Made by a program: the position numbers and the translations under genes. A stretch of DNA of 64,000 bases from an uncultured Draconibacterium sp. (GTDB taxonomy: Bacteria; Bacteroidota; Bacteroidia; Bacteroidales; Prolixibacteraceae): the NCBI RefSeq assembly GCF_963677155.1, contig NZ_OY781884.1, forward strand, positions 1,978,501 to 2,042,500. Direction: 5' to 3'. How positions within the stretch are numbered: position 1 is the stretch's first letter; every line of letters begins with the position of its first letter. Below are positions 33,952-60,687 of the stretch, piece by piece. The notes under the pieces are model-generated. The model saw only the letters and a list, made by a program, of their open reading frames with translations. It was not told the DNA's origin and made no database searches.

Positions 33952-33984
33952 ATTACACAATTATTACAAATCGATTAATCTTGC
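33952..33984. promoter_or_regulatory. Candidate Pho box (three 11-bp repeats)
   Basis: ATTACACAATT, ATTACAAATCG and ATTAATCTTGC follow each other at exact 11-bp steps (33952, 33963, 33974) upstream of the gene starting at 33894. The minus strand also shows TGTAA-phased repeats here, so the orientation is ambiguous. Confidence 0.55.
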
Positions 33985-33993
33985 AAGCGAGCA

Positions 33994-34026
33994 CAAAAAA
34001 ACGTCTGACTACGAATAGTCAGACGT
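33994..34026 (-). terminator. Terminator of the MORN-repeat gene
   Basis: ACGTCTGACTA pairs perfectly with TAGTCAGACGT around a 4-base loop; seven T follow on the minus strand. Confidence 0.85.
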
Positions 34027-34056
34027 TCTATGCAGTGTTTAATGTAACTTCAAATT

Positions 34057-34521
34057 TTAAAATTCGGAATAGTTTCTTTCGTTTACAACTACTCCCATTT
34101 CATCGTAGCTTTTCCAGGTTCCGGTTTTTTCACCGTTGCTGTAACAAAGTTCATACTTCAAATTACCTTCATCGTCCCACACGTACCAATTGCCGTCTTT
34201 TTTGCCGTTTTTGTAAGCGGCTTTAGCAACCTTAACTCCGTCGGTGTTGAAAGTAAGCCAAATACCGTGCATTTCGTTGTTTTTGTATGCACGTACTTCG
34301 TTCAGTTCGCCTGTCTCAAAATACAGTTTACATTCGCCATCTTTTTTCCCATCGATGAAGTTTGATACCATTTTTACATTTCCATTATCAAAATGGGTAG
34401 TGTACTCTCCTGAAAACAATTCAGAGTTCTGGTAATACAATCCATCAATTTCTTGCAGTTCCTGTGCGAACACTGTAAATGCTACAAATAAAACTCCTAC
34501 TAACAATGCTAACCTTTTCAT
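34057..34521 (-). CDS. Exported MORN-repeat variant protein
   Basis: The protein has 154 residues with a signal peptide (1-19). Four or five MORN-variant repeats (PF07661 type) follow: FDNGNVKMVSNFIDGKKDGEC, YFETGELNEVRAYKNNEMHGIW, FNTDGVKVAKAAYKNGKKDGNW and DDEGNLKYELCYSNGEKTGTW. Such repeats form an elongated beta-sheet; in Bacteroidota they occur in many secreted proteins without known activity. Three perfectly phased 11-bp repeats lie 89-121 bp upstream, so it is probably part of the phosphate-starvation regulon. Confidence 0.8.
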   Translation of the reverse strand: MKRLALLVGVLFVAFTVFAQELQEIDGLYYQNSELFSGEYTTHFDNGNVKMVSNFIDGKKDGECKLYFETGELNEVRAYKNNEMHGIWLTFNTDGVKVAKAAYKNGKKDGNWYVWDDEGNLKYELCYSNGEKTGTWKSYDEMGVVVNERNYSEF

Positions 34522-34609
34522 GGTAGCCTCCTTTCTTTGTTTTAATTTGTTTTTGACGTTACTTCTATTAATACAAAGTTAACATTTAATTCACATAAAC
34601 TAAACACTA

Positions 34610-34642
34610 CTGTAATTTTTTTGTAACATTTCTGTAATTTTT
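34610..34642 (-). promoter_or_regulatory. Candidate Pho box (three 11-bp repeats)
   Basis: On the plus strand CTGTAATTTTT, TTGTAACATTT and CTGTAATTTTT start at 34610, 34621 and 34632, exactly 11 bp apart. Read on the gene's strand they are ATTACA-type repeats upstream of the MORN-repeat gene. Confidence 0.7.
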
Positions 34643-34672
34643 AAGCAATCTTGATCAACAAAGTAAAGAGCA

Positions 34673-34733
34673 AAAAAAAACCCGGACTCTCATCCGGGGT
34701 TAAGGTAGGCTCTGCAACCTACCTGCCATTAAA
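34673..34733 (-). repeat. Duplicated double-hairpin 3' element with terminator, copy 1
   Basis: On the minus strand a hairpin GGTAGG...CCTACC is followed by a second hairpin CCCCGGATGAGAGTCCGGG and a run of T. The block from 34681 to 34733 is repeated almost base for base at 36508-36561. Each copy lies downstream of a minus-strand gene. Confidence 0.8.
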
Positions 34734-36366: not shown

Positions 36367-36399
36367 CTTAATTTAATTATTAAGTAATCAGTATGTAAT
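36367..36399 (-). promoter_or_regulatory. Candidate Pho box (three 11-bp repeats)
   Basis: On the minus strand ATTACATACTG, ATTACTTAATA and ATTAAATTAAG are consecutive 11-mers upstream of the gene starting at 36286. Confidence 0.65.
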
Positions 36400-36500
36400 A
36401 TATCTCTAATTCATGATTGTAGCATTTTTATGTAGTCTACGATTTTATATACAGGACTGAGCCTCACTATTTCTTACAGTTCTTCGGCATCGACACTATA

Positions 36501-36582: not shown

Positions 36583-38790
36583 TTAGTTAATAACCTTTGT
36601 AGTTCCGTCGACTGTGTTTAATGCATCCGACATCCAATCTGGTTTTGAAATGCCATTTCCGGCACCAGTTGCACTGCTGCTCTCGCCCACTGTCAATCCA
36701 CTTACTGATTTAGCGTGGTCTCCAATATTTTCAAATTTACAGTTGGTTACTACTACATCTCCTGCTGCAATGCGTGCATTTGCATCTGCATCATCTGCAT
36801 CTGCATAGAAATACGGATGACTTTTCCCATCAACTAAACCTCCGATAACGATGTCATCAATATTCATTTTACCAGAACCTTCCTTTAAGTAGAAAGGTTT
36901 TTCACCCATTCCATATACAGTAAGGTGTTTCAGTGTAGCATCAGTCATAGGTGTTGCAGCACCGTTGTCGCCATTGTTTGATCCTTCAATACCTGATTTT
37001 GTAGAATTCATAGAAAACCAGTATTCACCTTTTCCAGACCAACCATCAGCAAAGTCAATACCGTCATCATCGCTTCCTACAGATACAAGGTGAAACGCAT
37101 TTACTGTTCCACCGAAGAATTCAATACCATCATCTTTTCCCATATAAGAAACAAGGTAATCAACTTCAGTACCAGAACCCACACCGAAAAATGATACGCC
37201 ATTGAATTGTTTTTCCTCGGTATAATTATATCCGGTATATTCAACACGTAAATATTTAATTACACCTGAATTATCATCAGCAACATTTCCTCCATAAGAG
37301 AGACCTGATACTTCAGCTCCTGCTGATGCGTTTGATTTGTTTGTAGGTGCTTTACCACAAATTACCAAACCGCCCCAATCGCCTTTTATTTTTGTATCAC
37401 ATGTCATAACCACCGGAGCATCAGCCGTTCCATTTATAAAAATTTGGCCGCCCTGAGCAACTGCGATATATGAAATCTGACCTCCTTTAGCTTCAATAAC
37501 AGTTCCTGCTGGAATAGTTAAAGAACCGCCGTCTTTTACAACAAGTTTACCTAGTAATTTATAGTTGTTAGCTGCATTTAACTCAACATCATCAGAAATT
37601 TCAAAAGTCCCCGCACTACTCTTACCTAAATTAATAGTAACGCCTTCCATTTCATCATTAAAGATAGTAGTTGATTCATCAATTTTATTTAATGCATCAG
37701 GCATCCAATCTGGTTTATTAACACCATTTCCGGCTCCTTTTGCACCTGGATTTTCAGTAAAAGTCAACCCATCAATTGACTTTGCTTGACCATCCTTTAA
37801 ATCAACAAAGCTTACATTGGTAACAACTACATCGCCTGCTGCAACACGAGCATTCGCGTCAATATCATCAGAGTCAGTGTAAAAAATAGGCTGTTGTTTA
37901 CTATCTACAAGACCTCCAATAACAATATTGTCGATGTTGATATTGCCAGCACCTTCTTTTAAATAGAAAGGCTTTTCACCCATTCCATAAACAGTAATGT
38001 TTCTTAACGTTGCATTTGTCATTGGTGTAGCAGCACCGTTATCGCCATTGTTTGATCCTTCAATTCCTGATTTGGTAGAGTTTAAAGAAACCCAGTATTC
38101 ACCAGTTCCCGACCATCCGTCAGCAAAGTCAATACCATCATCATCGCTACCGACTGAAACTAAGTGAGACGCATTAACTGTACCACCAAAAAATTCAATA
38201 CCATCGTCTTTCCCGTTGTATGAAACAACATAATCAACCTGTGTTTCAGAACCCACTCCAAAAAACGAAACCCCATTAAATTGTTTTTCTTCGGTATAAT
38301 TATATCCGGTATATTCAACACGTAAATATTTAATTACACCTGAATTATCGTTAGCAACGGTGCCTCCGTAAGAAAGCCCGGAAACCTCTGCTCCTGCTGA
38401 TATATCCGATTTATTTGTTGGGGCTTTACCACAAATTACCAAACCACCCCATGATCCAGGAGTCTTCTCAGAACTGGTCATAATAACTGGTTTTTCAGCT
38501 GTACCGTTAATATAAATCTTGGCATCTTGGGCAACAGCAATATAAGCTGTTTGTCCTCCTTTAGCTTCAATAACCGTTCCAGCAGGGATAGTTAGCGAAC
38601 CACCCGCTATTACAGTAAGTGATCCTGTAAGAACATATTTCGTGCTTGCATCTAAAGTTTGTGAATCAGAAATCTCACCTTGCAGGTTCACAGGATCTGG
38701 TCCATCAGGATCAATAGGATCATCGTCGTCGTCACAACCAGCAAATGCTAATAGGGCAATTGCCAACATGGCTAAAATTAATTTTTTCAT
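36583..38790 (-). CDS. Duplicated beta-helix-type lipoprotein, partner of the TonB receptor
   Basis: The protein has 735 residues with lipobox AFAGC followed by DDDDDP, the acidic stretch that often marks surface-exposed Bacteroidota lipoproteins. Two copies of a domain of about 340 residues follow, with a period of 358 residues. Each has SLTIPAGTVIEAKGGQ, SWGGLVICGKAPTNK, YLRVEYTGYNYTEEKQFNGV, DDGIEFFGGTVN and DDDGIDFADGWSG. Alternating short strands with Gly/Asn turns suggest a right-handed beta-helix. Aspartate clusters may bind Ca2+ or a ligand. It lies 24 bp after a TonB receptor gene, so the pair probably act together on an extracellular, perhaps phosphorylated, substrate. A single-copy relative is at 45736. 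Confidence 0.8.
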   Translation of the reverse strand: MKKLILAMLAIALLAFAGCDDDDDPIDPDGPDPVNLQGEISDSQTLDASTKYVLTGSLTVIAGGSLTIPAGTVIEAKGGQTAYIAVAQDAKIYINGTAEKPVIMTSSEKTPGSWGGLVICGKAPTNKSDISAGAEVSGLSYGGTVANDNSGVIKYLRVEYTGYNYTEEKQFNGVSFFGVGSETQVDYVVSYNGKDDGIEFFGGTVNASHLVSVGSDDDGIDFADGWSGTGEYWVSLNSTKSGIEGSNNGDNGAATPMTNATLRNITVYGMGEKPFYLKEGAGNINIDNIVIGGLVDSKQQPIFYTDSDDIDANARVAAGDVVVTNVSFVDLKDGQAKSIDGLTFTENPGAKGAGNGVNKPDWMPDALNKIDESTTIFNDEMEGVTINLGKSSAGTFEISDDVELNAANNYKLLGKLVVKDGGSLTIPAGTVIEAKGGQISYIAVAQGGQIFINGTADAPVVMTCDTKIKGDWGGLVICGKAPTNKSNASAGAEVSGLSYGGNVADDNSGVIKYLRVEYTGYNYTEEKQFNGVSFFGVGSGTEVDYLVSYMGKDDGIEFFGGTVNAFHLVSVGSDDDGIDFADGWSGKGEYWFSMNSTKSGIEGSNNGDNGAATPMTDATLKHLTVYGMGEKPFYLKEGSGKMNIDDIVIGGLVDGKSHPYFYADADDADANARIAAGDVVVTNCKFENIGDHAKSVSGLTVGESSSATGAGNGISKPDWMSDALNTVDGTTKVIN

Positions 38791-38814
38791 CTCTAATTTG
38801 ATTTTTTGTTAATA

Positions 38815-41607
38815 TTAGAATCTATATGTTATTCCTAAACTTATTTTCATTCCCTTTTTATAAGACTGCACAAGATGATCTTGTGTCGGGTTTTCTTGCA
38901 TTCGTTGAACATCCTGATTCAATAAGTTTTTAGCACTCAGGCTAACCCCCAGCTTATTGAATTTCGAACGCAATACAAAATCAACAGTATGAAGAGCCTT
39001 ATCAACCTGATTTCCAAATGATGATGTTCCGATAAGTGATATCCGGTCTGATGTATAGTTATACACTACTGAAGTAGTAAGAGAATTGTCGCCATTTTTC
39101 CAATCGGTGCGGTACCCCAGAGCTGCGTTTGCAATAAGAGGGGCTGCTCCTTGCAAACCGTCTTCATCGGTATTAAAGTTTACTGAAATTTGAGAGTTTC
39201 CATTTTTATCCTTTGTTTCCTCCCTAACTTTCTCTCCATTTAACTCTTGTTTTGTTTCCATCAATGAAAGGTTGCCGGAAACAAATAATTTTCTCAATCC
39301 ATCTTCTGTTGTCAAATTAAGGATATCTTTTTTTACATCAATTTCAAGTCCATATACATAGGCCCAATCTCCGGTATTTGCATATGTAAAATCATTTGAA
39401 GCCGATGCCATTACAAACTTGTTGATCGGATCAAGTATATATTTTCCAAAGCCTGAAATAGAAACTAATTCTCCTCTGTTAGGGAACATTTCCCATTTTA
39501 ACTCCCCGTTATAAACAGTCGATGGATATAAATATGGATTCCCCAATGAAGTTTCGGTTATACCCTCGAACAGGAATAAGGCCATTTCGGTAAATTGAGG
39601 TAAAGTATAGGTTTGTCCAACCGCAAACCTCAAATTGTTTTTGTCGTTTAATGAATATTTTAAGGACAGTGATGGCAATACTTTCAACTCGTTAAAATCG
39701 CCCGATCCTCCTTCAGGAGCCAATGCTGTTACATACTCAACTTTCTGATAGACATTTTCAACTCGAGCTCCAAGCAAAGCCATTAATCTCTCAGAGATAT
39801 TGAGTTCTAACGAAAGGAAACCGGCATTTACAAATTGTGTTCCTTTATAAGTTGACGGACGAATTGTGTTTCCGAAAAAGGTTTTCATATAAAAACCATA
39901 ACCATCAGCTCTTTCAAGGTTTTCATCGTTTAGAAATGCATCAATATCCATTACATCAACCCGCACGAGATATCCATCAGGTGGTGGATTAAAAATGTTA
40001 CGGTTACGGTAGATATCATGGTTAAACTGGGTAGATTTAAAATCTCTCACTTTATATTTACCAGAATACCCAATTGTTAACTTACCTCGGTAATCTTTAT
40101 TATCAGTAAGCCCCTCACCAAATTTACGAGACAAACTCAAGTTCGCAGCAAATTCGTCCTCAACAAAGTTGTGAAAATAACGGAAGTTATCCGACTCATT
40201 GTCATCGGTAAAATAGGCCCAGCCATCTTCGTCTAGCCCGTTTAAAGAAAGGTGGCGACGATCAGGTATAATATTTTTTACATTATTGTAGGATATTCCC
40301 CATTCGAAATCCGTTTTCTCATTAACTTGGTGCGCTCCTAATAACTGGTTAACAAGAATTGTTGTGCGTTCAAAATCCGCACGACGAATTAAAGCACTAT
40401 CCTCCGCCAGGTCTTTTACAAAACCTCTTAAATTACGCAATTCCTGTTCGGAAGAATTTAGCAACATGGAGTTGAGATAAAGACTATTCTTTTTCCACTC
40501 ATAGTTCAGGTTAACCATTGCCGTAGTCTGGGTATTATAGTTATATTTTTCTCCAGACAATGTTTTCCGGGGGGCATCGCTTCCGTTAACCCTGTTTTGA
40601 ATTAAATCGCTGTATGAATAATCGTTCTCAAAAGATGCTGTAAAAAAAGCATTTAGCTTAGATCCTGAAAACTTAAAAGTTTTTCCGCCATTTAATGAGA
40701 ACCCAATATTGGGCATTAAAGACTTTTTCTGCGGATTCCATGTAGTTTCAAAATCATAACTACCTAGAGATGAAGCCATGTCAAAATCACTAAATCCTAA
40801 GAACCCAGGGCCATCTTGTAAATAAAATGTTTCCGCATCGAAAACACTTGTATTAGTTCCTCCTTTTATTCCAATCTGCAAATACTGTTTTCCACTAAAT
40901 TTCTTTGAGGCAATATCAACATTTGCTCCGGCAAAGTCGCCATATAAGGGTGAAGTAAATACCTTTTCAACACCTATATATTCAATAATATCAGTATCAA
41001 ATAGTTCGAGGTTTATGTTTTTTGTTTCTGCATTATTCGACGGAAACGGCAATCCATTCAAGGTAGTGTTGTTATATCTATCACCTAAACCACGCACATT
41101 CAATGTTTTTCCGCCCTCTTGCTTTGTAATACCGGTAATTTTTGTAGCAGCTGATGCAGCATCAGAAACCCCCTGATTCGATAGAGCCTGGGCTCCAATT
41201 GTTTCCTTAATTCCTACAGATTCTTTTTGTTCCAACAGCAACATACTCTCCGACTCACGATTTGCTTTTGCTACCACCTGAACGCCTTCAATTTCAAGTG
41301 TTGCCGGAGCCAAATCAACATTTAACGTTGTTTCCTGGCCGGCAGTAACTTCAACCTGAAATTCCTGAGTATCGTACGAAATAAACGAAACCACAATAGT
41401 ATGCGTTCCCGCTGTTACTTTTGGAATTACATAATTTCCATCAAAATCAGTAGTTGTTCCTTGTGTTGTTCCTTTAATTAATACAGTGGTCCCGATTAGG
41501 GCCTCTTTTGTTTTGGCGTCGGTTACAGTTCCTTTAATTGTTCCGGTTTGTGCTGTGACCACCAAGCCCTGAATTAGCAGCAGAATGCTAATAATCAATC
41601 TATTCAT
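38815..41607 (-). CDS. TonB-dependent receptor of the phosphate island (beta-helix lipoprotein partner)
   Basis: The protein has 930 residues: signal peptide (1-19), carboxypeptidase-regulatory domain (GTIKGTVTDAKTKEALIGTTV), a linker with ESMLLLEQKESVGIKETIG, a plug (ITKQEGGKTLNVRGLGDRYN, TTLNGLPFPSNNAETKNINL) and a beta-barrel ending SLGITYRF. The plug with IKETIGAQALSNQGVSDAASAATKITG resembles receptors that import phosphorylated or protein-derived ligands in Bacteroidota. It is cotranscribed with the lipoprotein gene. Multiple phased ATTACA-like 11-mers lie 67-126 bp upstream. Confidence 0.9.
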   Translation of the reverse strand: MNRLIISILLLIQGLVVTAQTGTIKGTVTDAKTKEALIGTTVLIKGTTQGTTTDFDGNYVIPKVTAGTHTIVVSFISYDTQEFQVEVTAGQETTLNVDLAPATLEIEGVQVVAKANRESESMLLLEQKESVGIKETIGAQALSNQGVSDAASAATKITGITKQEGGKTLNVRGLGDRYNNTTLNGLPFPSNNAETKNINLELFDTDIIEYIGVEKVFTSPLYGDFAGANVDIASKKFSGKQYLQIGIKGGTNTSVFDAETFYLQDGPGFLGFSDFDMASSLGSYDFETTWNPQKKSLMPNIGFSLNGGKTFKFSGSKLNAFFTASFENDYSYSDLIQNRVNGSDAPRKTLSGEKYNYNTQTTAMVNLNYEWKKNSLYLNSMLLNSSEQELRNLRGFVKDLAEDSALIRRADFERTTILVNQLLGAHQVNEKTDFEWGISYNNVKNIIPDRRHLSLNGLDEDGWAYFTDDNESDNFRYFHNFVEDEFAANLSLSRKFGEGLTDNKDYRGKLTIGYSGKYKVRDFKSTQFNHDIYRNRNIFNPPPDGYLVRVDVMDIDAFLNDENLERADGYGFYMKTFFGNTIRPSTYKGTQFVNAGFLSLELNISERLMALLGARVENVYQKVEYVTALAPEGGSGDFNELKVLPSLSLKYSLNDKNNLRFAVGQTYTLPQFTEMALFLFEGITETSLGNPYLYPSTVYNGELKWEMFPNRGELVSISGFGKYILDPINKFVMASASNDFTYANTGDWAYVYGLEIDVKKDILNLTTEDGLRKLFVSGNLSLMETKQELNGEKVREETKDKNGNSQISVNFNTDEDGLQGAAPLIANAALGYRTDWKNGDNSLTTSVVYNYTSDRISLIGTSSFGNQVDKALHTVDFVLRSKFNKLGVSLSAKNLLNQDVQRMQENPTQDHLVQSYKKGMKISLGITYRF

Positions 41608-41673
41608 AACTTTAACTTGCAGTGTTAATGACTATTTTCTTTTGTTATTCAGCGGCAAAGCAAAACCTTTAAT

Positions 41674-41733
41674 GTTACAGCAGGATTAATCCTCATTTAA
41701 ACTATTATTACATTTGCTTAATCAAAATGTAAC
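41674..41733. promoter_or_regulatory. Candidate Pho box cluster upstream of the TonB receptor
   Basis: GTTACAGCAGG (41674), ATTAATCCTCA (41685), TTTAAACTATT (41696) and ATTACATTTGC (41707) are phased at 11 bp. On the gene strand GTTACATTTTG and ATTAAGCAAAT occupy 41712-41733. The region is partly palindromic, so strand assignment is open. Confidence 0.55.
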
Positions 41734-41867: not shown

Positions 41868-43631
41868 CTACTCTTTTGAAAGTGAGAACAGAAACTCAAC
41901 ACCGCCCTTTTGCCTGTTTTTTACCGACACCCTTCCTTTGTGCAGTGTAATGGCATTTTTCACAATTGCCAATCCAAGTCCGGTGCCACCTTTTGCGCGC
42001 GACCGACCTTTATCGACCCTATAAAAACGCTCGAACAATCGGGGCAAATGAGCTTCGGGAATTTCAGAGCCTGAGTTAAAAAATGAGAAATAATAATAAT
42101 TGTCATCCTGATGATAACAACGGATATGAATTTGTATTCCCTTACCGCCATAGTTTATGGCATTCTCCATCAGGTTTTGGAAAACGGAGAATAGCAACGA
42201 TTCGTTTCCATTTATAACCGTTTCCGGTTCTACGTCCTCAATAAATTCAATGTTGTTATCTTCAATTTTAATTTGAAAATATTCGTAAATATCGTCGCAT
42301 ACTTGCTTCAGGTCAACTTGTTTCATTTCAAACAATTCGCCTGCATCCTCAATGTTGTTAATCAGAGAAACATCGTTAATCAATGTTGTTAAACGCTCCG
42401 ATTGAAAAAAGGCTTTTTCGAGAAAGTACTTTAGTTTATCGTGTGGTATGGGCCAGTTATCGAGAATGGTTTCCAGGTACCCGCGAATTGACGATAGCGG
42501 CGTTTTTAGTTCGTGTGCAATGTTCGATGTAAGTTGCTGTTTTAACAAGCGGCGTTTTTCTAAACGGGTAACATCGGTAATCACCACCTCAAAACTTTTG
42601 TCGGCAAAAATTATCGTTTGTATTTTATAGTATTTTTCGTTCTTCGATACCGTATAAACCAATTGTGGCAGTTTATCGCTTTTACCAAACTCAGGATTAA
42701 CCAACTCATTATTGATAAACTTATTTAGTTTTTCAAATTCGGGCAACTTCAAGATTTTACCCGAAGATGTTACCTCCTTTTTCGACATGAGGTTTACAAT
42801 TTGTACAAAGCGACCATTTGAAAGAGTAATTTTTCGTTTGTCCGAAAAAAAAGCAATGGCCTCGTCGAGCGCATCAAGATGGTTAAATAACTTTTCTCGC
42901 TCGGTCGACAGATCATCCTTTGTTTTCTTCAGGTTATTATAAATGGTAATAATCTGCGAACTGATGATCCCCAACTCATTATCCGGAAACTCATTGTTGT
43001 ACTCTACCAACTCGTTGTTTCCTGCTTTTAACGCAAAGTCTTTTAGTTTTTTAATTGTTCCCGACAGGCGAAGTGTTACCAACGTTAAAAGCAGCCCGAT
43101 AAAAAAGAACAAGCCAACGATAAACACAATAAAGTTACGACTGGTTTTCAGGAAATCTTTTACCTCAACATCGTAAACCAGTGCGGCACGTACAAAATAC
43201 TCCGGATACTGTTTGGCGTAATAGTAAAACTCTTGCTTTGTTGTTGCCGACACCCGAATGTTCACTCCAATGCCGTGGTCGATTGCTTTCTGAATTTCGG
43301 GCCGGTGAAGATGATTTTCCATTTCCTGATAATCGTCTACAAAATTATCGTAAAGCACCTGCCCTTTTTTGTTGATAACCGTTATACGTGTATTGTTTTG
43401 CGGAAACAGATTGACGACTTCGGCAACCTGATCGAATTTTTTAGTGGTAAATAAATCATTCTGTTCGATAAACCGGGAAGTAATTTCCGAGGTGTTATTC
43501 AGTAATGCCTCAAGCTGCGAGGCCCGAAAGTCTTTTTCGCGTTCGTACTGGTACACCAAAACTGTAGCGGTAAATATTATAAATACTACACTGTAATAAA
43601 AGAATATTTGAGCGCTAAAGTTTTTCTTCAC
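41868..43631 (-). CDS. Membrane sensor histidine kinase of the phosphate island
   Basis: I start at GTG 43631 (587 residues); a TTG two codons upstream is the alternative, and neither is an ATG. Two membrane helices (about 7-27 and 168-190) flank a periplasmic sensor domain. A HAMP-like segment, a PAS-like domain (about 245-360) and the kinase core follow. The phospho-acceptor His is in SNIAHELKTPLSS (about 373). N box ENAINYGG, F box ERFYRVDKGRS and G boxes AKGGTGLGLAIV are all intact. It lies 21 bp downstream of its response regulator gene. PhoR-like architecture and location suggest an envelope-phosphate or stress signal. Confidence 0.92.
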   Translation of the reverse strand: MKKNFSAQIFFYYSVVFIIFTATVLVYQYEREKDFRASQLEALLNNTSEITSRFIEQNDLFTTKKFDQVAEVVNLFPQNNTRITVINKKGQVLYDNFVDDYQEMENHLHRPEIQKAIDHGIGVNIRVSATTKQEFYYYAKQYPEYFVRAALVYDVEVKDFLKTSRNFIVFIVGLFFFIGLLLTLVTLRLSGTIKKLKDFALKAGNNELVEYNNEFPDNELGIISSQIITIYNNLKKTKDDLSTEREKLFNHLDALDEAIAFFSDKRKITLSNGRFVQIVNLMSKKEVTSSGKILKLPEFEKLNKFINNELVNPEFGKSDKLPQLVYTVSKNEKYYKIQTIIFADKSFEVVITDVTRLEKRRLLKQQLTSNIAHELKTPLSSIRGYLETILDNWPIPHDKLKYFLEKAFFQSERLTTLINDVSLINNIEDAGELFEMKQVDLKQVCDDIYEYFQIKIEDNNIEFIEDVEPETVINGNESLLFSVFQNLMENAINYGGKGIQIHIRCYHQDDNYYYFSFFNSGSEIPEAHLPRLFERFYRVDKGRSRAKGGTGLGLAIVKNAITLHKGRVSVKNRQKGGVEFLFSLSKE

Positions 43632-43652
43632 TGACAATTTATTGCGTTTTTG

Positions 43653-51609: not shown

Positions 51610-51627
51610 CGAATGTTCGGACTGAAT

Positions 51628-52743: not shown

Positions 52744-52836
52744 CGTCGTTAAATTTTATGTAAACAGCTGAGAACACAATACAAAGTGTCCTCAGCTTAA
52801 ATTTCTAAAATCTATTCTATGCGATAATTACGATTT

Positions 52837-55578
52837 CTAAAAATTAAACTTCAGGCCAAAATTTACTTTAATATCGTAGAACTCGGCCTGGTAAGTGTAT
52901 TGCGACTCCCCCTGATAATAACGCAACGGCGTATTCAAAATATTGTTGAGCTCAGCAAACAACATAAAGTTTTTGTTGAAATGGTAGCTGGTATTAAAAT
53001 CGAGGTACGAAACCTTATCGTAGTACACATCTTCGAAAGCTTTGTCGCTGTATTCTTCAACAAAAGCACCTGCGTAATTGTACGACACACGAGCCGATAG
53101 CTTTTTGCCTTCGTAGTACAACGATGCATTCAAGGTATTTTCTGGTGTTCCGGGCAAAGTCAGATCATCGTCGTTGCGGTCTTCAATCTGGAAATTACTC
53201 ACCGTTGACTTGGTGTAGGTATAGTTGGCATAAAATCCGGTTTGGCGAAGGAAGCCCGGCAAAAAGTCGAACTGACGCTGGAAGGCCATTTCAACACCAA
53301 ACAAGGTAGCATCGCCGGCATTAATAGGCTGGGTAAATTTTCCCCAGGTTTTCCCCAGATAATCGTAATCCGACTGAATTCCGTCAACAATAAAATCGTT
53401 GATGTCTTTGTAAAAAATTCCACCCGAAACCAAACCAATAGACTCAAAATAATGTTCAGCCATTAAATCAAAGTTCCATGCTGTAGTTGGGGTAAGATCG
53501 GGATTACCAATCTCAACACGGTCTTTTTCATTATTGATTTCAACACGCGGAACCAAGTCGATATATTTTGGGCGAGCCAGAGTATTGGTAACACTTGCTT
53601 TAATGTTGGTATTTTTATCGATCTTGTATTTTAACAACAACGATGGTAACACCTTTGTGTAGTCGTTATCCACTTCTTTGGTATCCACAAGATCCTCAAC
53701 GTCTCCTTCATCATCCAGAATCAGCTCTTTACCTGAGTAGTTAACTGAAGTGTTTTCAACCCTTACACCAGCGACTACATCCAAACGGCCAAACGACTGG
53801 TCGAAACGCAGGTAAGCGGCAGTTACATCTTCCGATGCATCAAAGTTTCCGGCAAGTTCTTCCAGGTTTACTTCGCCTTCAAAATCGTCTGAATTAAGAT
53901 TTAAACCACTTAAATATTTTATATCAACAAAAGTTCCGGCCGCATAATCTCCGGCAAGGAAATCATCTTTTGTTTTAACAACTGTATTACTGAAAGCTCC
54001 GTTATTAAAACTGTCTTCATTATTTGGCGAATAATCGTAGAAATCGTTGTTGCGTTTTTTGCTTTTACCTTTGTATTTGGCACCAAAACGCAAAACACTT
54101 GTTCCATTCTGAAAAGGAAGTTTAAAGTCGACTTTGAATTTTTTGTCGATATCTTCGGTGTACTGATGTTCTTCTGTCAATTCATCAAATTTCCAGTTGC
54201 TGTTAAAATCCTGCGCTTCCGGGGTATTAATAATCACCTGTGGTTTTTCGGTATCTGCAAGATCCTGGCTGAACGCCACATCTTTAATCTTGTACTGTAG
54301 GTAACGTTCGTTTGGGCGGTCTTCGTTGGCCTTTGAGTACGAACCTTTCCAGTCGATTTCAAGGGCACCAAACTGGTGTTCGCCACCTAAAGAAATATGG
54401 TAAGTTCGCTGATCTTCCAAACGTGCATCTTTATTGGTTCCGCCTTTCACCTGGCGTTCAATTTTTGCCACATCTTCATCCAAATCTTTGTAAACAACAC
54501 GGTAACGGTTTTCCCAGTCGTTACGGTGGTTGTACATTACTTTTGCCTCGATTTTGTTATTGGCATCAAATTTATAATCAAGCGCCCCCGAGTAACTCTG
54601 GCGTAAACGTTCAATCAGATAGGTACGCACCTGCATTTCTTTCATTTTTCCCTCGTCGTTCCATTCGGCTTCCAAATCATCCGATCCCATCATATGGTCC
54701 TGCACCGACCCCGCTAGTGTAACACCCAGTTTGTTGTTTAAAAACCGATCGGCGTACAACAACGAAAAGTTTGGAGCCACTTTGCCGCGAAGTGCATTGT
54801 AAGTACCGCCAACCGATCCGGTAATACGACGTGAGTAAGGATTTGATTTTGTTACAAGGTTTACCGAACCGCCAATGGCATCGGCGTCCATATCGGCGGT
54901 AACCACCTTGTTTACTTCAATGCTTTGAATCATATCCGAAGGAATAAGGTCGAGCTGGATGGAACGTGTTTCAGCCTCAGCCGACGGAATACGGTCGCCA
55001 TCAATAGCTACCGAGTTATACTCGGGCGATGTTCCGCGAATGTTTCCAAAACGCGCTTCCCCCTGATCGTACTGTACATTGATTCCGGGAATACGTTTTA
55101 AGGCATCACCAACATTCTGGTCGGGGAAACGACCTACCTGATCAGAAGAAATAATGTTGGTAATATTCATGCTGCTTTTTTGTTGGTTCAAAGCTTTTGA
55201 TTGCCCCTGTAACGCACCGTTTACCACCACTTCTTCAATATCAATACCGGCCTGAAGTTGAAAATTAAGAGTGCTTGTTTTTCCAACAGTAACATTTATC
55301 GTTTTAACTGTTTCTTTAAATCCTATGTACGAAACTTTTACTTTATAATCACCTGGATCAAGAGCCACAATCCGATAAAATCCGTTTACATCGGTTACAG
55401 CCCCTTTATGCAAATCTTCAATTACAATAGCCGCTCCTGGCAAAGGAAGGTTTTCAGTGTCGACAATCCTACCGGCAATGGTACCTTTATTTGCGGCATT
55501 TTCGTCTTCGCCTTCTGCCATTGCACTAAACATACTGACAAACAATAGAATAAATAAAAGAAGAGATAATTTTTTCAT
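52837..55578 (-). CDS. TonB-dependent receptor of the phytase operon
   Basis: The protein has 913 residues: signal peptide (1-21), carboxypeptidase-regulatory domain (GTIAGRIVDTENLPLPGAAIVIE), plug (FPDQNVGDALKRIPGINVQYD, GNIRGTSPEYNSVAIDGDRIP, DADAIGGSVNLVTKS) and a large barrel ending VNFGLKFNF. The plug form (VGDALKRIPGI, DADAIGGSVNL) matches TonB receptors often found beside phytases or other phosphatases in Bacteroidota and Caulobacterales. It would import inositol phosphates or their products. Phased ATTACA repeats lie 94-126 bp upstream, so the operon is probably under Pho control. Confidence 0.92.
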   Translation of the reverse strand: MKKLSLLLFILLFVSMFSAMAEGEDENAANKGTIAGRIVDTENLPLPGAAIVIEDLHKGAVTDVNGFYRIVALDPGDYKVKVSYIGFKETVKTINVTVGKTSTLNFQLQAGIDIEEVVVNGALQGQSKALNQQKSSMNITNIISSDQVGRFPDQNVGDALKRIPGINVQYDQGEARFGNIRGTSPEYNSVAIDGDRIPSAEAETRSIQLDLIPSDMIQSIEVNKVVTADMDADAIGGSVNLVTKSNPYSRRITGSVGGTYNALRGKVAPNFSLLYADRFLNNKLGVTLAGSVQDHMMGSDDLEAEWNDEGKMKEMQVRTYLIERLRQSYSGALDYKFDANNKIEAKVMYNHRNDWENRYRVVYKDLDEDVAKIERQVKGGTNKDARLEDQRTYHISLGGEHQFGALEIDWKGSYSKANEDRPNERYLQYKIKDVAFSQDLADTEKPQVIINTPEAQDFNSNWKFDELTEEHQYTEDIDKKFKVDFKLPFQNGTSVLRFGAKYKGKSKKRNNDFYDYSPNNEDSFNNGAFSNTVVKTKDDFLAGDYAAGTFVDIKYLSGLNLNSDDFEGEVNLEELAGNFDASEDVTAAYLRFDQSFGRLDVVAGVRVENTSVNYSGKELILDDEGDVEDLVDTKEVDNDYTKVLPSLLLKYKIDKNTNIKASVTNTLARPKYIDLVPRVEINNEKDRVEIGNPDLTPTTAWNFDLMAEHYFESIGLVSGGIFYKDINDFIVDGIQSDYDYLGKTWGKFTQPINAGDATLFGVEMAFQRQFDFLPGFLRQTGFYANYTYTKSTVSNFQIEDRNDDDLTLPGTPENTLNASLYYEGKKLSARVSYNYAGAFVEEYSDKAFEDVYYDKVSYLDFNTSYHFNKNFMLFAELNNILNTPLRYYQGESQYTYQAEFYDIKVNFGLKFNF

Positions 55579-55772: not shown

Positions 55773-58043
55773 TTATTTACTCTTTTCAACCGAGTAGCTT
55801 ACAAAATCTCTGTGTGCTTTAATCAGATTAATTGAATGCAACAACAGGTTTTTAGTTTCGCTGTTTATGTTGAAATACAACATCGAATTACGTGTATTTA
55901 CATCTTTCGTTTTAATACGTTTAATCTGGTTTTTCTCTGTCTTTTTCAGGTAATCCACAATCTCATCGCGTTTAACAATCAAATCGTCCAGTTTATCGAA
56001 AGTGTTTTCCTCTATCATTGTTAGTCCCATGCTATAGAACTCATCGAGTTTTGCAGCCAGTTCCTGTAGCTCCTCTGCCTGATCTTTCGAGAATGGTTTA
56101 TGCTGATTATCCAAATGCTCGAATAAAGGCTGGATCAGGAAGTTTAGCGAGTGGGCAATTTCGCGCTGATAATCGACTACCTGTACATAAAAATGCCCGG
56201 TATCAACATGGTCTTCAATTTTTGAAAGCGTATCGAATATCTTGCTCTTTATTTTTTTCGATTTTGAATTCAGCTTATCTTTCAACAAAATACTTTCCTT
56301 CAAATCAGTTCTGTTTTCCTGAAGGAAACTTTCAACTCCACCAGAAAAAGCTTTATTCGATGAAACCAATGCATTAATACAGTGCTTTTTACATTTCTGC
56401 ATTACTTTTTCAACACCATCAGTTTCGTTAAATGCCTCCTCTTCTTCTTCAATAGCTTTGTTGTTACGCTTTTTGAACAAGAATTGTGTGCGAATTACCA
56501 TAAAAATAGCAATGGCTACAAATACAAAAATCAGGAATTTACCACCTACCGAAATTAACAACGCTACCAATCCGGAAACAGTGAAAGCAATTATTGCGGT
56601 TAAAAACCATCCGCCAATCACAGCAAATACTCCCGAGATACGATAAACAGCACTTTCGCGATCCCAAGCTCGATCGGATAATGAAGTTCCCATAGCCACC
56701 ATAAACGTTACGTAAGTAGTAGAAAGAGGTAAGGTAAACGAAGTTGCAATGGCAATAAGGATACTGGCTGTTACCAGGTTTACCGATGCACGAATTTTAT
56801 CGAAAGCAGGCGTATCAGGATCGTTTGCCGGGCCCAGAGGAACAGGTGTAAAACGGCGACTTACCGACTCGCGAACACTTGTTGGCATTGAGCGGCTAAC
56901 CGATTTATTGAAGTTGATGCTACTACGTACCATTAATCTTGCAATCAGTGACGAACCAAAGCGTTCCATTCCTTCCGACTGACGTGCCAGGTTGATCTCG
57001 GTTTTTGTTACTGCCTGCGCCTTTTTCGACATAATAAGCGTAACTACCATTACCAGTCCCGAGATTAATAACATGTAAACCGGGGTACTGCTTTTCCCAG
57101 CCAGTTTTCCCATCGAAAAGGCTTCGGGGCTCATACCCGATGCTACCCAGGCCTGGAACGATTTAAAACCGGCAACCGGCACTCCGATAAAGTTTACCAG
57201 GTCGTTTCCGGCAAATGCCAATGCAAGTGAGAAAGTTCCTACCAGCACAATAACTTTCAGAATGTCAATTTTAAAAACCCATTGTAACAATTGAATAATT
57301 ACCGTCCACCCCACAAAACTCAACAACAACACTATTGCTGTATTTTGTTGAATCCATTCGTATAATGTTCCACCTCCAGTTAGCTCCATATCGGCAAACG
57401 ACGATCCCCGAATACCTTTAATCAGCATAAAATAAGTAATGCCTGTAATCGCCAAACCTCCAAAAGCCGAACCGAAATATTTTAAACTTTTTCCGTATTC
57501 AAACGAAAACAGCAGACGTGTTAGGTACATCACTATTGCCCCGACTGTAAAAGCCACAAACACCGAAAGCAAAATACCGCCGATTATAGCCAGCGCCTTT
57601 TCGGAATTTATGTAGTGGTAGAGTTCGGCAACAACCGATCCTCCGGCTGTTTTAATTTTAACCACCGATACGGCAACCGCAGCGCCCAATAATTCAAACA
57701 CAATGGAAACCGTTGTTGAAGTTGGCATTCCGAAAGTGTTAAACATGTCGAGCAGAATAATATCCGTAATCATTACAGCCAAAAATATGACCATGATTTC
57801 GGCAAAATAGAACTGATCGGGATGAAAGATCCCTTTTCGGGCTACTTCCATCATTCCGTTTGAGAAGGTTGCTCCAACCAGAATCCCCAGACTTGCCATC
57901 AAGAAGATAACCCATTTAGGTGCTGCTTTAGAGCCAATTGCAGAGTTTAAAAAGTTTACTGCGTCGTTACTTACACCAACAATTAAGTCGGAAATTGCCA
58001 AAGCAAATAGTACAACAACGAGAACCAAATAAAAATTTTCCAT
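55773..58043 (-). CDS. pitA: PiT-family inorganic phosphate transporter with C-terminal PhoU-like domain (copy 1)
   Basis: The protein has 756 residues. The two PiT signatures are present as GVSNDAVNFLNSAIGSKAA (about 23-41) and FAGNDLVNFIGVPVAGFKSF, each in one half of an inverted-repeat transporter of about 10 helices; SLSDRAWDRESAVYRISGVFAVI is also typical. After about residue 530 a soluble helical domain (MQKCKKHCINALVSSNKAFSGG, TGHFYVQVVDYQREIAHSLN) resembles PhoU. Ordinary PiT proteins have 400-500 residues, so the extension probably senses or gates transport. It moves phosphate with a cation across the inner membrane. A near-identical paralogue is encoded next to it. Confidence 0.9.
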   Translation of the reverse strand: MENFYLVLVVVLFALAISDLIVGVSNDAVNFLNSAIGSKAAPKWVIFLMASLGILVGATFSNGMMEVARKGIFHPDQFYFAEIMVIFLAVMITDIILLDMFNTFGMPTSTTVSIVFELLGAAVAVSVVKIKTAGGSVVAELYHYINSEKALAIIGGILLSVFVAFTVGAIVMYLTRLLFSFEYGKSLKYFGSAFGGLAITGITYFMLIKGIRGSSFADMELTGGGTLYEWIQQNTAIVLLLSFVGWTVIIQLLQWVFKIDILKVIVLVGTFSLALAFAGNDLVNFIGVPVAGFKSFQAWVASGMSPEAFSMGKLAGKSSTPVYMLLISGLVMVVTLIMSKKAQAVTKTEINLARQSEGMERFGSSLIARLMVRSSINFNKSVSRSMPTSVRESVSRRFTPVPLGPANDPDTPAFDKIRASVNLVTASILIAIATSFTLPLSTTYVTFMVAMGTSLSDRAWDRESAVYRISGVFAVIGGWFLTAIIAFTVSGLVALLISVGGKFLIFVFVAIAIFMVIRTQFLFKKRNNKAIEEEEEAFNETDGVEKVMQKCKKHCINALVSSNKAFSGGVESFLQENRTDLKESILLKDKLNSKSKKIKSKIFDTLSKIEDHVDTGHFYVQVVDYQREIAHSLNFLIQPLFEHLDNQHKPFSKDQAEELQELAAKLDEFYSMGLTMIEENTFDKLDDLIVKRDEIVDYLKKTEKNQIKRIKTKDVNTRNSMLYFNINSETKNLLLHSINLIKAHRDFVSYSVEKSK

Positions 58044-58150
58044 TTAGTAGTATTTAATGACGTGTAAAGTCTTGATTTTTGATTCTTATTTTTCTTATTT
58101 TTTGTTAGCTGTCACCGGCGGCAAAGTTGCTCTAATCAGGCAATTAAAAT

Positions 58151-58194
58151 GTTACAGTTTGATTACATTTTAATTAATTTACGATTACACGCTG
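58151..58194. promoter_or_regulatory. Candidate Pho box (four 11-bp repeats)
   Basis: GTTACAGTTTG (58151), ATTACATTTTA (58162), ATTAATTTACG (58173) and ATTACACGCTG (58184) are phased at 11 bp upstream of the first PiT gene. Their orientation is opposite to the gene, unlike the receptor and porin boxes. Confidence 0.65.
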
Positions 58195-58240
58195 TTCAAA
58201 AAACACTGATCTACTGCGCATTAATACTTAAACCAAAGCA

Positions 58241-58269
58241 CAAAAAAAGCCGGGATAATTTCCCGGCTT
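58241..58269 (-). terminator. Terminator of the second PiT gene
   Basis: AAGCCGGGA pairs with TCCCGGCTT around a short loop; seven T follow on the minus strand. Confidence 0.85.
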
Positions 58270-58293
58270 GTTAAAATATTGTTTCCAGAATAT

Positions 58294-60567
58294 TTAATTA
58301 TTCTTTTGAAGTGTATTTGTGATAAAATCACGATATGCTTTTAACAGATTCACGGTGTGTAGTAGCAAATACTCCAGCTCCGAAATTAATTTGAAGAACA
58401 ACTGCGAGTTTCGCGTATTAACCATTTTATTTTTAATACGTTTTATCTGGTTTTTCTCCATTTTATGAATCTGATCCAGAATGTCGTCGCGTTCTTCAAT
58501 CAATTGTTCAAGGTCTTCAAATGTTTTACCCTCTATATCCTTCAGCACCGCTTTAAAGAACCTATCAATACGTTCTGTTACATCCTGCAATTCAACATGC
58601 TGCTCTTCAATAAATGGTTTATGGTTGTTTTCAACATGTTTAATCATAGGCTCAAGCATAAAATGCACAGCATGTGCCATCTCGCGTTTATGCTCCATCA
58701 TTTGTACATAAAAATGACTGGTATCCAATGCTCCTTCGGTAAATTTTGTAACCGTTGAATAAACCTTGTCACGGTTTTTCTTCGATTTTTTCGAGAATTT
58801 CTTACTCGCCACCTCTACCTTTTTCAGTCCTGCTCTATCCTCTTTCAGGAAACTTTCAATACCATCGGTAACAATCAGGTCACTCGATTTTACAGCATTT
58901 ACCATTTGCTTCGCACTTTTCTCCAGAATCTGCTCATGCGCATCGGCTTCTTCAATCTCTTCGTCTTCTTCGGCGGCCTGCTGATCGCGCTTTTTCATCA
59001 TAGCATGTGTGCGTATAACCATAAAAAGAGCAACTATTACGAATACGAAAATCATAAACTTGCCGCTAACTGCAATAATCAGCGCTACAATACCCGAAAC
59101 GGTAAAAGCAATTAATGCAGTTAAAAACCATCCTCCGATTACTGCAAAAACACCCGAAATTCGATATACTGCACTTTCGCGGTCCCAGGCACGATCAGAT
59201 AACGAAGTACCCATTGCAACCATAAATGTTACGTATGTAGTTGATAATGGCAGTTTAAGTGAAGTACCTATAGCAATTAATATACTTGCAACCACCAGGT
59301 TTACCGACGCCCTAACCTTATCAAACGAAGGTGGATCCTGATCATCTTCACTAACATAAGAATGTGGTTCAAAACGCGAACTCACCCCATTGGTAACAGA
59401 TGAGGGCATTACATTTGCCAGTCGTTTATTAAACTTAGTGGTTCCCCGAACAATTACACGCGCAGCAAACGACGACCCAAAACGTTCGTCTCCTTCATTC
59501 TGACGCGATAAATCGAGCGATGTTGCAATCACCGATTTCGCCTTTTTCGACATAATCAGCGTTACAATCATTACCAATCCGGCAATTAACAACATGTATG
59601 TTGGCGTACCCACTTTACCTGCCAACATTGCCATCGAAAAGGTATTGGGGTTAGTAGCTCCGTCGGCAATCCAGGCCTGGAACGAATTATAACCGGCCAA
59701 CGGCACACCAATAAAGTTTACCAGGTCGTTTCCGGCAAAAGCCATTGCAAGCGCAAAAGTTCCGGCCAGTACTACAATCTTTAATATCTTAATATTGAAA
59801 ACCCATTTTAATAACTGAATTAGAACAACCCAAAATCCGAAGCTGTATAAAAGCATTAATGCTGTGTGGTGTTTTAACCATTCCTGAATGGTCTCTCCGC
59901 TGCTTAGCTCAATACCTGCATAGGTTGAGCCCTTCATTCCTTTTATAACAATAAAATAAGTGATGGCTGTAATGGCTAAACCGCCAAAGATTGAACCAAA
60001 ATATTTCATTGGCCCGCGGTATTTAAAAGTAAACACCAGGCGGGTTAAATACTGTACAATGGCACCAACGGTAAAGGCAATAAACACCGAAAGCAATATT
60101 CCGGTAATAATAGCAAGCGCCTTACTCGAATTGATGTATTGCGACAGTTCCATCAATACAGATCCTCCGGCTGTCTTAATCTTTACTATCGATACCGACA
60201 CAGCGGCACCTAGTAATTCAAAAACGATTGAAACCGTTGTTGATGTTGGCATCCCAAAAGTATTGAACATATCAAGCAGAATAACGTCGGTTATCATTAC
60301 TGCAAGAAAAATGATCATGATCTCGGAAAAAACAAACATGTCGGGATGAAAAATTCCTTTCCGCGCAACTTCCATCATTCCACTCGAAAAAGTAGCACCT
60401 ATAAGTACTCCTAAACTAGCCATTAAAAAGATTACCCACTTGGGCGCTGCTTTCGAACCAACTGCAGAATTAAGAAAATTTACGGCATCGTTACTTACTC
60501 CTACAATCAGGTCTGAAATTGCTAATGCAAACAGTACAATTACAAGAATCAGATAAAAGTTTTCCAT
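58294..60567 (-). CDS. pitB: PiT-family inorganic phosphate transporter with C-terminal PhoU-like domain (copy 2)
   Basis: The protein has 757 residues and is closely similar to copy 1 along its whole length (identical stretches such as GVSNDAVNFLNSA and FAGNDLVNFIGVP). The PiT core occupies about 1-520. The C-terminal helical region (EQILEKSAKQMVNAVKSSD, TSHFYVQMMEHKREMAHAVH) again looks PhoU-like but diverges most between the copies. The tandem pair with separate terminators and promoters suggests differential expression, for example one constitutive and one induced. This gene is divergent from phoR across a 197-bp region with 11-bp phased ATTAA repeats. Confidence 0.9.
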   Translation of the reverse strand: MENFYLILVIVLFALAISDLIVGVSNDAVNFLNSAVGSKAAPKWVIFLMASLGVLIGATFSSGMMEVARKGIFHPDMFVFSEIMIIFLAVMITDVILLDMFNTFGMPTSTTVSIVFELLGAAVSVSIVKIKTAGGSVLMELSQYINSSKALAIITGILLSVFIAFTVGAIVQYLTRLVFTFKYRGPMKYFGSIFGGLAITAITYFIVIKGMKGSTYAGIELSSGETIQEWLKHHTALMLLYSFGFWVVLIQLLKWVFNIKILKIVVLAGTFALAMAFAGNDLVNFIGVPLAGYNSFQAWIADGATNPNTFSMAMLAGKVGTPTYMLLIAGLVMIVTLIMSKKAKSVIATSLDLSRQNEGDERFGSSFAARVIVRGTTKFNKRLANVMPSSVTNGVSSRFEPHSYVSEDDQDPPSFDKVRASVNLVVASILIAIGTSLKLPLSTTYVTFMVAMGTSLSDRAWDRESAVYRISGVFAVIGGWFLTALIAFTVSGIVALIIAVSGKFMIFVFVIVALFMVIRTHAMMKKRDQQAAEEDEEIEEADAHEQILEKSAKQMVNAVKSSDLIVTDGIESFLKEDRAGLKKVEVASKKFSKKSKKNRDKVYSTVTKFTEGALDTSHFYVQMMEHKREMAHAVHFMLEPMIKHVENNHKPFIEEQHVELQDVTERIDRFFKAVLKDIEGKTFEDLEQLIEERDDILDQIHKMEKNQIKRIKNKMVNTRNSQLFFKLISELEYLLLHTVNLLKAYRDFITNTLQKNN

Positions 60568-60610
60568 TTAAATTTGGTTTTTGTAAAGGTCGGCAAATAT
60601 AAAGTTTGTC

Positions 60611-60687
60611 AAAATTTTAATCCTTTTGTAATATTAATAAAATATTAACTAACCATGAAATTACCATTAACCAATTAGTAACCACTT
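60611..60687. promoter_or_regulatory. Degenerate 11-bp phased repeats between pitB and phoR
   Basis: On the minus strand ATTACAAAAGG and ATTAAAATTTT (60611-60632) point to pitB. On the plus strand ATTAATAAAAT, ATTAACTAACC, ATGAAATTACC and ATTAACCAATT run at 11-bp steps from 60633 towards phoR. The match is weaker than elsewhere. Confidence 0.45.

What the first reader, a model, noticed from the sequence alone, without database searches (positions are those of the whole stretch)
33952..60687. A local Pho regulon marked by ATTACA repeats at exact 11-bp spacing
At least seven intergenic regions (33952, 34610, 36367, 41674, 44504, 55672, 58151, weaker at 60611) carry consecutive 11-mers starting ATTACA/GTTACA/ATTAA. 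They lie upstream of the phosphate transporters, the TonB/phytase operon, the TonB/beta-helix operon, the porin operon, the first two-component pair, and three small secreted-protein genes of unknown role. The period equals that of the PhoB operator in Proteobacteria, but the core differs (TTACA rather than TGTCA). The motif therefore assigns unknown genes (33544, 34057, 34814, 36583, 45736, 50635) to phosphate starvation.
Basis: partly seen in the sequence, partly recalled or inferred. Interest (0 to 1): 0.75.

Follow-up and report, generated by a model that had tools for sequence, protein, structure and literature searches.

The report
Bacteroidota phosphate-starvation operator, 11-bp repeats
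A 27-kb stretch of this Bacteroidota genome looks like a self-contained phosphate-starvation gene cluster whose promoters carry tandem 11-base sites, probably for the PhoB regulator, one letter away from the E. coli version and often set at the same distance from the core promoter, which lets several unknown genes be assigned to phosphate scavenging.

Summary
The seven main intergenic regions, and no other non-coding region of the window, carry strong tandem TTACA-N6 units at 11-bp spacing. The "weaker" 60611 site does not pass. In the 5.27-Mb genome all three exact TTACA triples lie in the window.

The Pho reading holds. The regulator and kinase in the middle pass NCBIfam's Bacteroidota PhoB and PhoR cut-offs. 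In related genomes the same arrays precede porin-pstSCAB-phoU-phoBR operons, Pho4 transporters, the CpdR-like gene and TonB receptors. None of the 8 family genomes without a phoB match (of 60) has a composite match; 28 of 52 with one do.

New here: read towards the gene the unit is TGTAA(T/C), one letter from E. coli TGTCA. In relatives, after 22 of 73 arrays a TTTG (-7-like) element starts exactly 11 nt on. E. coli phoA, phoB and pstS show the same gap before a -10-like hexamer.

Against: this genome's own pst operon has no array; half of the window's arrays face the other way without fixed spacing; the composite shows no excess across the phylum; 34814 has no independent support. Binding and phosphate response are untested. 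New variant of a known kind.

The parts
33941..33984 (+). Array 1 (4 units, ATTACA orientation on +), upstream of 33544 on -; read towards the gene it is TGTAA with the last unit 11 nt before the -7-like TAGTTTTG
   Evidence: 9 of 9 upstream regions of this gene's family homologs score >=13
33923..33930 (-). -7-like element TAGTTTTG of the 33544 promoter
34595..34638 (-). Array 2, upstream of 34057 (MORN_2 protein), TTACA orientation towards the gene
   Evidence: an exact triple precedes a MORN_2 gene in another genome (L174)
36367..36410 (-). Array 3, upstream of 34814 (T9SS-tail protein); score 13, no independent support
41674..41717 (+). Array 4 (degenerate middle units), upstream of the 38815 TonB receptor / 36583 lipoprotein genes; TGTAA towards the gene, 11 nt before TTGCTTTG
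41656..41663 (-). -7-like element TTGCTTTG of the 38815 promoter
44504..44547 (+). Array 5a between phoB (-) and the 44633 porin gene (+)
44558..44601 (+).
   Evidence: aligned counterparts next to phoB in L120, L123 and L128
55672..55704 (-). Array 6 (3 units), upstream of the 52837 TonB receptor / phytase / glycosyltransferase genes
58151..58194 (+). Array 7, upstream of the 55773 Pho4 transporter; TGTAA towards the gene, 22 nt before CAACTTTG (58122-58129)
43653..44339 (-). PhoB response regulator (NF053854, 324.8 bits, cut-off 270)
41868..43637 (-). PhoR histidine kinase (NF053855, 649.3 bits, cut-off 500)
33544..33894 (-). Small CarboxypepD_reg-like secreted protein
34057..34521 (-). MORN_2 repeat protein
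36583..41607 (-). TonB receptor (38815-41607) and two-repeat lipoprotein-like protein of the 45736 family (36583-38790)
44633..47043 (+). Porin homologous to the porin that leads pst-phoU-phoBR in relatives (44633-45724) and 45736-47043, predicted beta-rich, same family as 36583
50635..55578 (-). TonB receptor (52837), phytase (51628) and glycosyltransferase (50635)
55773..60567 (-). Two Pho4-family transporters (55773-58043 with an array; 58294-60567 without a qualifying one)

Best explanation
The repeats are PhoB operators (Pho boxes) of a compact phosphate-starvation regulon. Low phosphate activates the kinase PhoR (41868-43637), which phosphorylates PhoB (43653-44339). PhoB~P binds head to tail, one protomer per 11-bp unit (TGTAAT/C read towards the gene), where RNA polymerase would otherwise meet the -33 element, 11 nt upstream of the -7 box TAnnTTTG, and recruits polymerase as E. 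coli PhoB does in front of -10. It switches on scavenging operons: porin plus lipoprotein, TonB receptor plus lipoprotein, TonB receptor plus phytase plus glycosyltransferase, a Pho4 transporter, and small envelope proteins. Shown here: the arrays, their spacing, their recurrence before phosphate genes in relatives, the fixed distance to a -7-like element in relatives, and the identity of PhoB and PhoR by family models. Inferred: binding by this PhoB, the promoter elements as used in the cell, the direction of regulation, and the response to phosphate.
For: Spacing and non-chance. PhoB/PhoR. Without using the window, TTACA/TGTAA is the top 5-mer at 11-bp spacing in the phoB loci of family relatives (23 pairs, background 0.7). 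Family upstream regions scoring >=14: 18 of 75 for island-type genes, 0 of 78 for other genes, 0 of 32 convergent gaps. The array precedes porin-pstS-pst permeases-pstB-phoU-phoBR in L118. Composite (three units, N11, NNNNTTTG, <=1 mismatch): 41 matches in 60 family genomes, reversed control 10; 23 of the 30 with a returned locus precede phosphate-type or island-type genes (one of the 30 is the window's own); 28 of 52 genomes with phoB have a match, 0 of 8 without (p 0.004). -7-like element at exactly +11: 22 of 73 arrays, mean 0.67 per other offset. E. coli phoA, phoB, pstS: TGTCA-N11-hexamer within 1 mismatch of TATAAT.
Against: This genome's pst operon has no array. Four of the eight lead genes of the window have the array in the TTACA orientation without a common distance to a -7 box; none was found after the array on the phoB side. 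The order-level excess at >=14 is not significant (3 of 46 against 2 of 105, p 0.17; at >=13 11 of 46 against 3 of 105, p 1e-4). No phylum-wide excess of the composite (15 against 16 control in 198 genomes). The phoB-less genomes are few, related, and five of the eight are at most 91% complete. No experiment.
Confidence: 0.9

Rival explanations
1. The arrays are read by the second OmpR-type regulator of the island (RR 61962-62660 with kinase 60765-61802), not by PhoB.
For: The pair sits beside a Pho4 gene here and in L136, and the kinase beside Pho4 in L123. Its regulator scores 218.7 bits with the PhoB model, under the cut-off of 270, so it is a relative that could bind a similar site.
Against: Arrays lead the pst-phoU-phoBR operon in loci where no homolog of this pair is seen within the fetched 20 kb (for example L118, L119). 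Composite matches go with phoB presence. The intergenic region that this pair shares with Pho4_58294 has no qualifying array.
Confidence: 0.06
2. The arrays are PhoB sites, but the TTACA-oriented ones (34057, 34814, 44633, 52837) repress or modulate rather than activate.
For: In relatives the fixed 11-nt distance is a feature of the TGTAA-to-gene reading; TTACA-oriented arrays of the window show no common distance.
Against: The TTACA-oriented set includes the phytase/receptor and porin/lipoprotein operons; a phytase and its receptor and lipoproteins of this kind are induced in F. johnsoniae, though OprP there is not (PMC8115612, passages). At the porin, L123 and L128 have a TTACA-oriented array 11 nt before TATATTTG.
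Confidence: 0.2
3. The arrays are chance repeats of A+T-rich promoter DNA.
For: The region is A+T-rich (window G+C 39%), and single units are common.
Against: Shuffles, spacing controls, coding-DNA control, reversed-pattern controls and relatives.
Confidence: 0.01

Closest known systems
E. coli PhoB Pho box (TGTCA direct repeats, 11-bp units)
   Same: Tandem head-to-tail 11-bp units; core TGTAA against TGTCA; 11 nt from the last unit to the core promoter element (for E. coli, 45 for relatives); PhoB family regulator with a similar recognition helix region by alignment
   Different: A instead of C in the core; in front of a TAnnTTTG-type -7 box instead of TATAAT; often 3-4 units; both orientations present in the window
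Riemerella anatipestifer PhoP DAP-seq motif (TTTAACA most conserved letters; PMC9603813, passages)
   Same: Bacteroidota regulator linked to phosphate starvation; letters compatible with the TAACA variant that leads the order-level loci
   Different: In the passages seen no 11-bp repeat structure or promoter distance is given, it is reported upstream of 583 genes and likened to ArcA; 'pst' does not occur in the text; orthology to this PhoB not tested
Bacteroides fragilis PhoB at the pstC promoter (PMC3547664, passages)
   Same: Bacteroidales PhoB, direct binding to a pst promoter by EMSA and PhoB-dependent pstC expression
   Different: A 512-bp fragment; no site or consensus in the passages seen
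Flavobacterium johnsoniae PHO regulon (PMC8115612, passages)
   Same: phoBR cluster with TonB receptor, lipoprotein FII, glycosyltransferase and OprP; phytase with TonB receptor; most of these induced by low phosphate
   Different: OprP and PhoR not significantly induced there; no operator described ('motif', 'promoter' and 'Pho box' absent from the text); orthology not tested
Bacillus subtilis PhoP box (TTAACA-like repeats)
   Same: T/A-rich unit with about 11-bp period (recalled, no call)
   Different: Other phylum and promoter elements; not tested here

Membership tests
Pho box (PhoB-type operator) | Tandem direct repeats with an 11-bp period | tested here: met
Pho box (PhoB-type operator) | PhoB and PhoR encoded in the genome | tested here: met
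   NF053854 and NF053855 over their cut-offs
Pho box (PhoB-type operator) | Located before phosphate-uptake and phosphorus-scavenging genes | tested here: met
   Window: Pho4 and the phytase operon. Relatives: porin-pst-phoU-phoBR, Pho4, PstS. Not before this genome's own pst
Pho box (PhoB-type operator) | Fixed distance to the core promoter element | tested here: met
   22 of 73 arrays in relatives at +11; in the window 11, 11 and 22 nt for 3 of 8 lead genes, not for the other 5
E. coli-type Pho box in the strict sense | TGTCA core | tested here: not met
   Core is TGTAA(T/C)
Pho box (PhoB-type operator) | Bound by phosphorylated PhoB; genes respond to phosphate | not testable with these tools
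   Needs EMSA/footprint and expression data
Bacillus subtilis PhoP box | TTAACA-type core and its position at Bacillus promoters | not tested
   recalled only

The most novel reading that the evidence does not exclude
A Pho switch that has dropped Pst and PhoU. PhoB of the window forms a clade (100/99) with PhoBs of four other genomes, together from four genera; in four of the five (window, L120, L123, L128) phoB has a divergent porin plus lipoprotein beside it in the place where 12 of 20 family loci, two of them of the window's own genus, have porin-pst-phoU. PF01895 finds no stand-alone PhoU in the window genome, only two PhoU domains in one 587-aa frame elsewhere, and its pst is a distant, array-less one. 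PhoR would then sense phosphate, or a proxy, without a PstSCAB-PhoU complex. In addition, the operator keeps the E. coli geometry (last unit, 11 nt, core element) although the core element is of another kind, so PhoB's docking on polymerase would be older than the promoter code it serves.
Probability: 0.3. Interest if true: 0.65.

Novelty: new variant of a known kind. Interest (0 to 1): 0.5.

Why it matters
PhoB has been shown to act in Bacteroidota, but in the papers I could search I found no operator with repeat structure and promoter geometry for it (searches; open-licence papers only). This one (TGTAA units at 11 bp, 11 nt before a TTTG -7-like box) can be scanned for in related genomes and points to phosphorus scavenging for proteins of unknown function, among them two of a lipoprotein-like family of the kind abundant in the F. 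johnsoniae low-phosphate exoproteome. The same 11-nt gap in E. coli and here, before different core promoter elements, is a testable statement about how PhoB contacts polymerase. A Pho system apparently without PhoU makes the question of how PhoR senses phosphate directly testable.

Tried and rejected
The matrix scan of the genome used a model made from the window's own eight sites. Of 13 hits with E <= 10, eight are in the window, the top seven among them; the best outside has E 1.26. This is partly by construction, and only 150 of 1,926 first-look candidates were scored, so I rest on the simple pattern and on relatives. A first alignment of 44-bp sites was misregistered because of my coordinates and was dropped.

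Whether the array marks pst everywhere: among 18 named genomes (12 with a PstS-family match) one Tannerellaceae locus (L322) had a 2-mismatch and one Bacteroidales locus (L323) a 3-mismatch composite; the other PstS loci had none at <=3 mismatches. The phylum scan gave no excess. Of 34 loci that I selected from the 80, 7 had an array by a looser rule; many of the 80 are not PhoB orthologs, so I did not use this as a test.

Exact TWACA triples in 60 family genomes number 52, reversed control 27 (sums mine), so about half may be chance; examples: inside a gene (L170), before a primase-like gene (L161), an integrase (L179), a GH20 gene (L169). The one <=1-mismatch hit outside the window in this genome precedes an anthranilate synthase gene and has TTAGA in the middle. 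With the window-trained model on nine relatives, 3 of the 11 hits with E <= 0.6 are not within 30 kb of phoB.

The model of 45736 (mean pLDDT 77.5, pTM 0.81, 15 sequences) gave beta-helix polysaccharide enzymes as best Foldseek matches, with TM-scores of 0.40 or less in the rows shown; no PDB relative by sequence. I use it only as weak support for a beta-helix. The C-terminal parts of the two long Pho4 proteins match no Pfam family above cut-off. The comparison of PhoB with PDB chains was not used. L045-L048 were fetched and not analysed further.

Papers: PMC4415409, PMC8115612, PMC9603813 and PMC3547664 were seen as passages; all others as search listings only. Recalled, from no call: the Bacteroidetes TAnnTTTG/TTTG promoter consensus, the B. 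subtilis PhoP box, head-to-tail PhoB binding and sigma contact details beyond the passage, and the reading of the kinase/regulator beside pst as NarL-type.
Full report
What is there. The window (64 kb of a 5.27-Mb single-contig genome, C1:1978501-2042500) holds a phosphate island at about 33.5-60.6 kb. NCBIfam names PhoB (43653-44339, NF053854, 324.8 bits, cut-off 270) and PhoR (41868-43637, NF053855, 649.3 bits, cut-off 500). Pfam finds two Pho4 transporters, a phytase with a TonB receptor and a glycosyltransferase, a second TonB receptor, and small envelope proteins. The products of 36583 and 45736, without Pfam matches over cut-off, belong to one family (38% identity over 241 aa, E 2e-43).

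The repeats. In the ATTACA orientation the arrays start at 33941, 34638(-), 36410(-), 41674, 44504, 44558, 55704(-) and 58151. Shuffles give a mean of 0.74 positions against 16; other spacings give at most 2. TTACA pairs in non-coding DNA peak at 11, 22 and 33 bp (8, 6, 2), with one each at 31 and 32; coding DNA shows no peak. In the whole genome the exact triple occurs three times, all here.

Independent test in relatives. PhoB loci were taken from 19 family genomes (20 loci, L118-L137) and 20 genomes drawn at order level (20 loci, L138-L157; one of these, G072, is of the same family). Among the 5-mers tested (words of fewer than three different letters left out), TTACA/TGTAA is the most enriched at 11-bp spacing in the family loci (23 pairs, background 0.7); TAACA and TTACA lead in the order loci (9 and 7). 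Arrays scoring >=14 are in 18 of 75 family upstream regions of operons with an island-type gene, 0 of 78 of other genes, 0 of 32 convergent gaps (p 2e-8). At order level the >=14 excess is not significant (3 of 46 against 2 of 105, p 0.17); at >=13 it is (11 of 46 against 3 of 105, p 1.4e-4); one of the two 'other' hits (L147) precedes a Na+/Pi cotransporter gene. Loci of related species are not independent, so these p values are generous. Per lead gene in the family, regions scoring >=13: CpdR33544 9 of 9, porin 14 of 15, TBDT38815 5 of 10, MORN 3 of 8, PhoB 3 of 11.

What the arrays precede elsewhere. Between porin and phoB in L118 (same genus) Pfam finds PstS, two permeases, an ABC ATPase and PhoU, and an exact array precedes this porin-pst-phoU-phoBR operon. 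By gene order 12 of the 20 family loci and 1 of the 20 order-level loci have the same arrangement; only L118 was checked by Pfam. On other contigs exact triples precede a Pho4 gene (L176), a MORN_2 gene (L174), a CarboxypepD_reg gene (L163) and TonB-type receptors (L162, L172), but also unrelated genes. With the window-trained model on nine relatives, 8 of the 11 hits with E <= 0.6 lie within 30 kb of phoB (distances mine).

Promoter geometry. Read towards the gene the unit is TGTAA(T/C). In the window the last unit lies 11 nt before TAGTTTTG at 33544, 11 nt before TTGCTTTG at 38815 and 22 nt before CAACTTTG at 55773. In relatives alone, an 8-mer ending in TTTG starts at exactly +11 after 22 of 73 arrays, against 0.67 per other offset; in the opposite reading small peaks at 9 and 20 appear, which I attribute to TGTAACA holding both TGTAA and TAACA. 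E. coli phoA, phoB and pstS have TGTCA-N11-hexamer (TATAGT, CATAAT, TATAAC; hexamers chosen by match to TATAAT, not by mapped starts). The composite of three units, N11 and NNNNTTTG with one mismatch gives 41 matches in 28 of 60 family genomes, reversed control 10 (sum mine). 24 of the 41 lie within 30 kb of phoB on the same contig; 28 of 52 genomes with a phoB match have one, 0 of 8 without (p 0.004). Of the 30 matches whose loci were returned (one is the window's own), 23 precede porin (10), TonB receptor (3, at only 25-29% identity), PhoU (2), PhoB (2), CpdR-type (2), Pho4 (2), PstS (1) or Porin_O_P (1) genes; 7 do not: one runs off its contig, four have no ORF within reach, one is KduI-like and one unassigned. 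The other 11 matches were not classified, except that the exact one at G139:C11:1151925 precedes a Pho4 gene (L187). At phylum level there is no excess: 15 against 16 control in 198 genomes. So this exact form is a family-level trait.

Results against the simple story. This genome's pstSCAB (C1:1172804-1176333) has no phoU beside it and no array, and its PstS matches the Pho-linked PstS of L118 at 28% over 156 aa, PstB at 45%. Four of the eight lead genes in the window have the array in the TTACA orientation, without a common distance to a -7 box; around the porin L123 and L128 have 11 nt, the window 14 by my count. No homolog of 34814 was found in the 40 loci. No -7-like box was found after the array on the phoB side.

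Evolution. PhoB of the window groups with those of L120 (same genus), L123, L128 and L121 at 100/99 and apart from the same-genus PhoBs of L118 and L119, whose loci have the pst-phoU arrangement. In window, L120, L123 and L128 a divergent porin-45736 pair stands next to phoB instead; the genes beside phoB in L121 were not identified. Exchange of the island between genera or loss of old copies would both fit; I did not test which.

Comparison with what is known. B. fragilis PhoB binds the pstC promoter, no site given in the passages seen (PMC3547664). R. anatipestifer PhoP has a DAP-seq motif with TTTAACA as most conserved letters (PMC9603813, passages). F. johnsoniae induces a TonB receptor, lipoprotein FII, phytase with receptor, a glycosyltransferase and PhoB under low phosphate, but not OprP or, significantly, PhoR (PMC8115612, passages). 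The element works like, and by position equals, an E. coli Pho box; the TGTCA core itself is not met.

Verdict. Confidence that these are PhoB operators is 0.9; the unshown steps are binding and phosphate response.

Noticed in passing
window 43653-47043; L120, L123, L128, L121: PhoB of this island forms a clade (100/99) across four genera that excludes the PhoBs of two same-genus genomes, whose loci carry pst-phoU: island exchange or differential loss.
   Followed up: partly
G000:C1:1172804-1176333 (L044:6805-10334): A pstSCAB operon without phoU or array, only distantly similar to the Pho-linked pst of a same-genus relative, directly behind a kinase/response-regulator pair.
   Followed up: partly
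window 60765-62660: A second kinase/regulator pair beside the Pho4 genes; its regulator scores 218.7 bits with the Bacteroidota PhoB model, under the cut-off; a homologous pair lies next to a Pho4 gene in L136.
   Followed up: no
window 36583-38790 and 45736-47043: Two members of one lipoprotein-like family with invariant Asp/Glu residues (D210, D211, E214, D232, D233, D236 in 45736), weakly beta-helix by fold search; possible catalytic or metal site.
   Followed up: partly
window 55773-60567: Two Pho4 proteins of 756-757 aa whose C-terminal halves match no Pfam family above cut-off, whereas a relative's copy (L187) is cut by the locus end and cannot be compared.
   Followed up: no
window about 34680-34731 and 36500-36553: Nearly identical stretches of about 50 bases (GGCAGGTAGGTTGCAGAGCCTACC...CCGGATGAGAGTCCGGG) in two neighbouring intergenic regions, terminator-like.
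   Followed up: no
window 48122-49153: A Schlafen/AlbA_2 domain gene inside the island, probably unrelated to phosphate.
   Followed up: no
window 11267-18040: An ORF of 2257 aa on the - strand, not examined.
   Followed up: no
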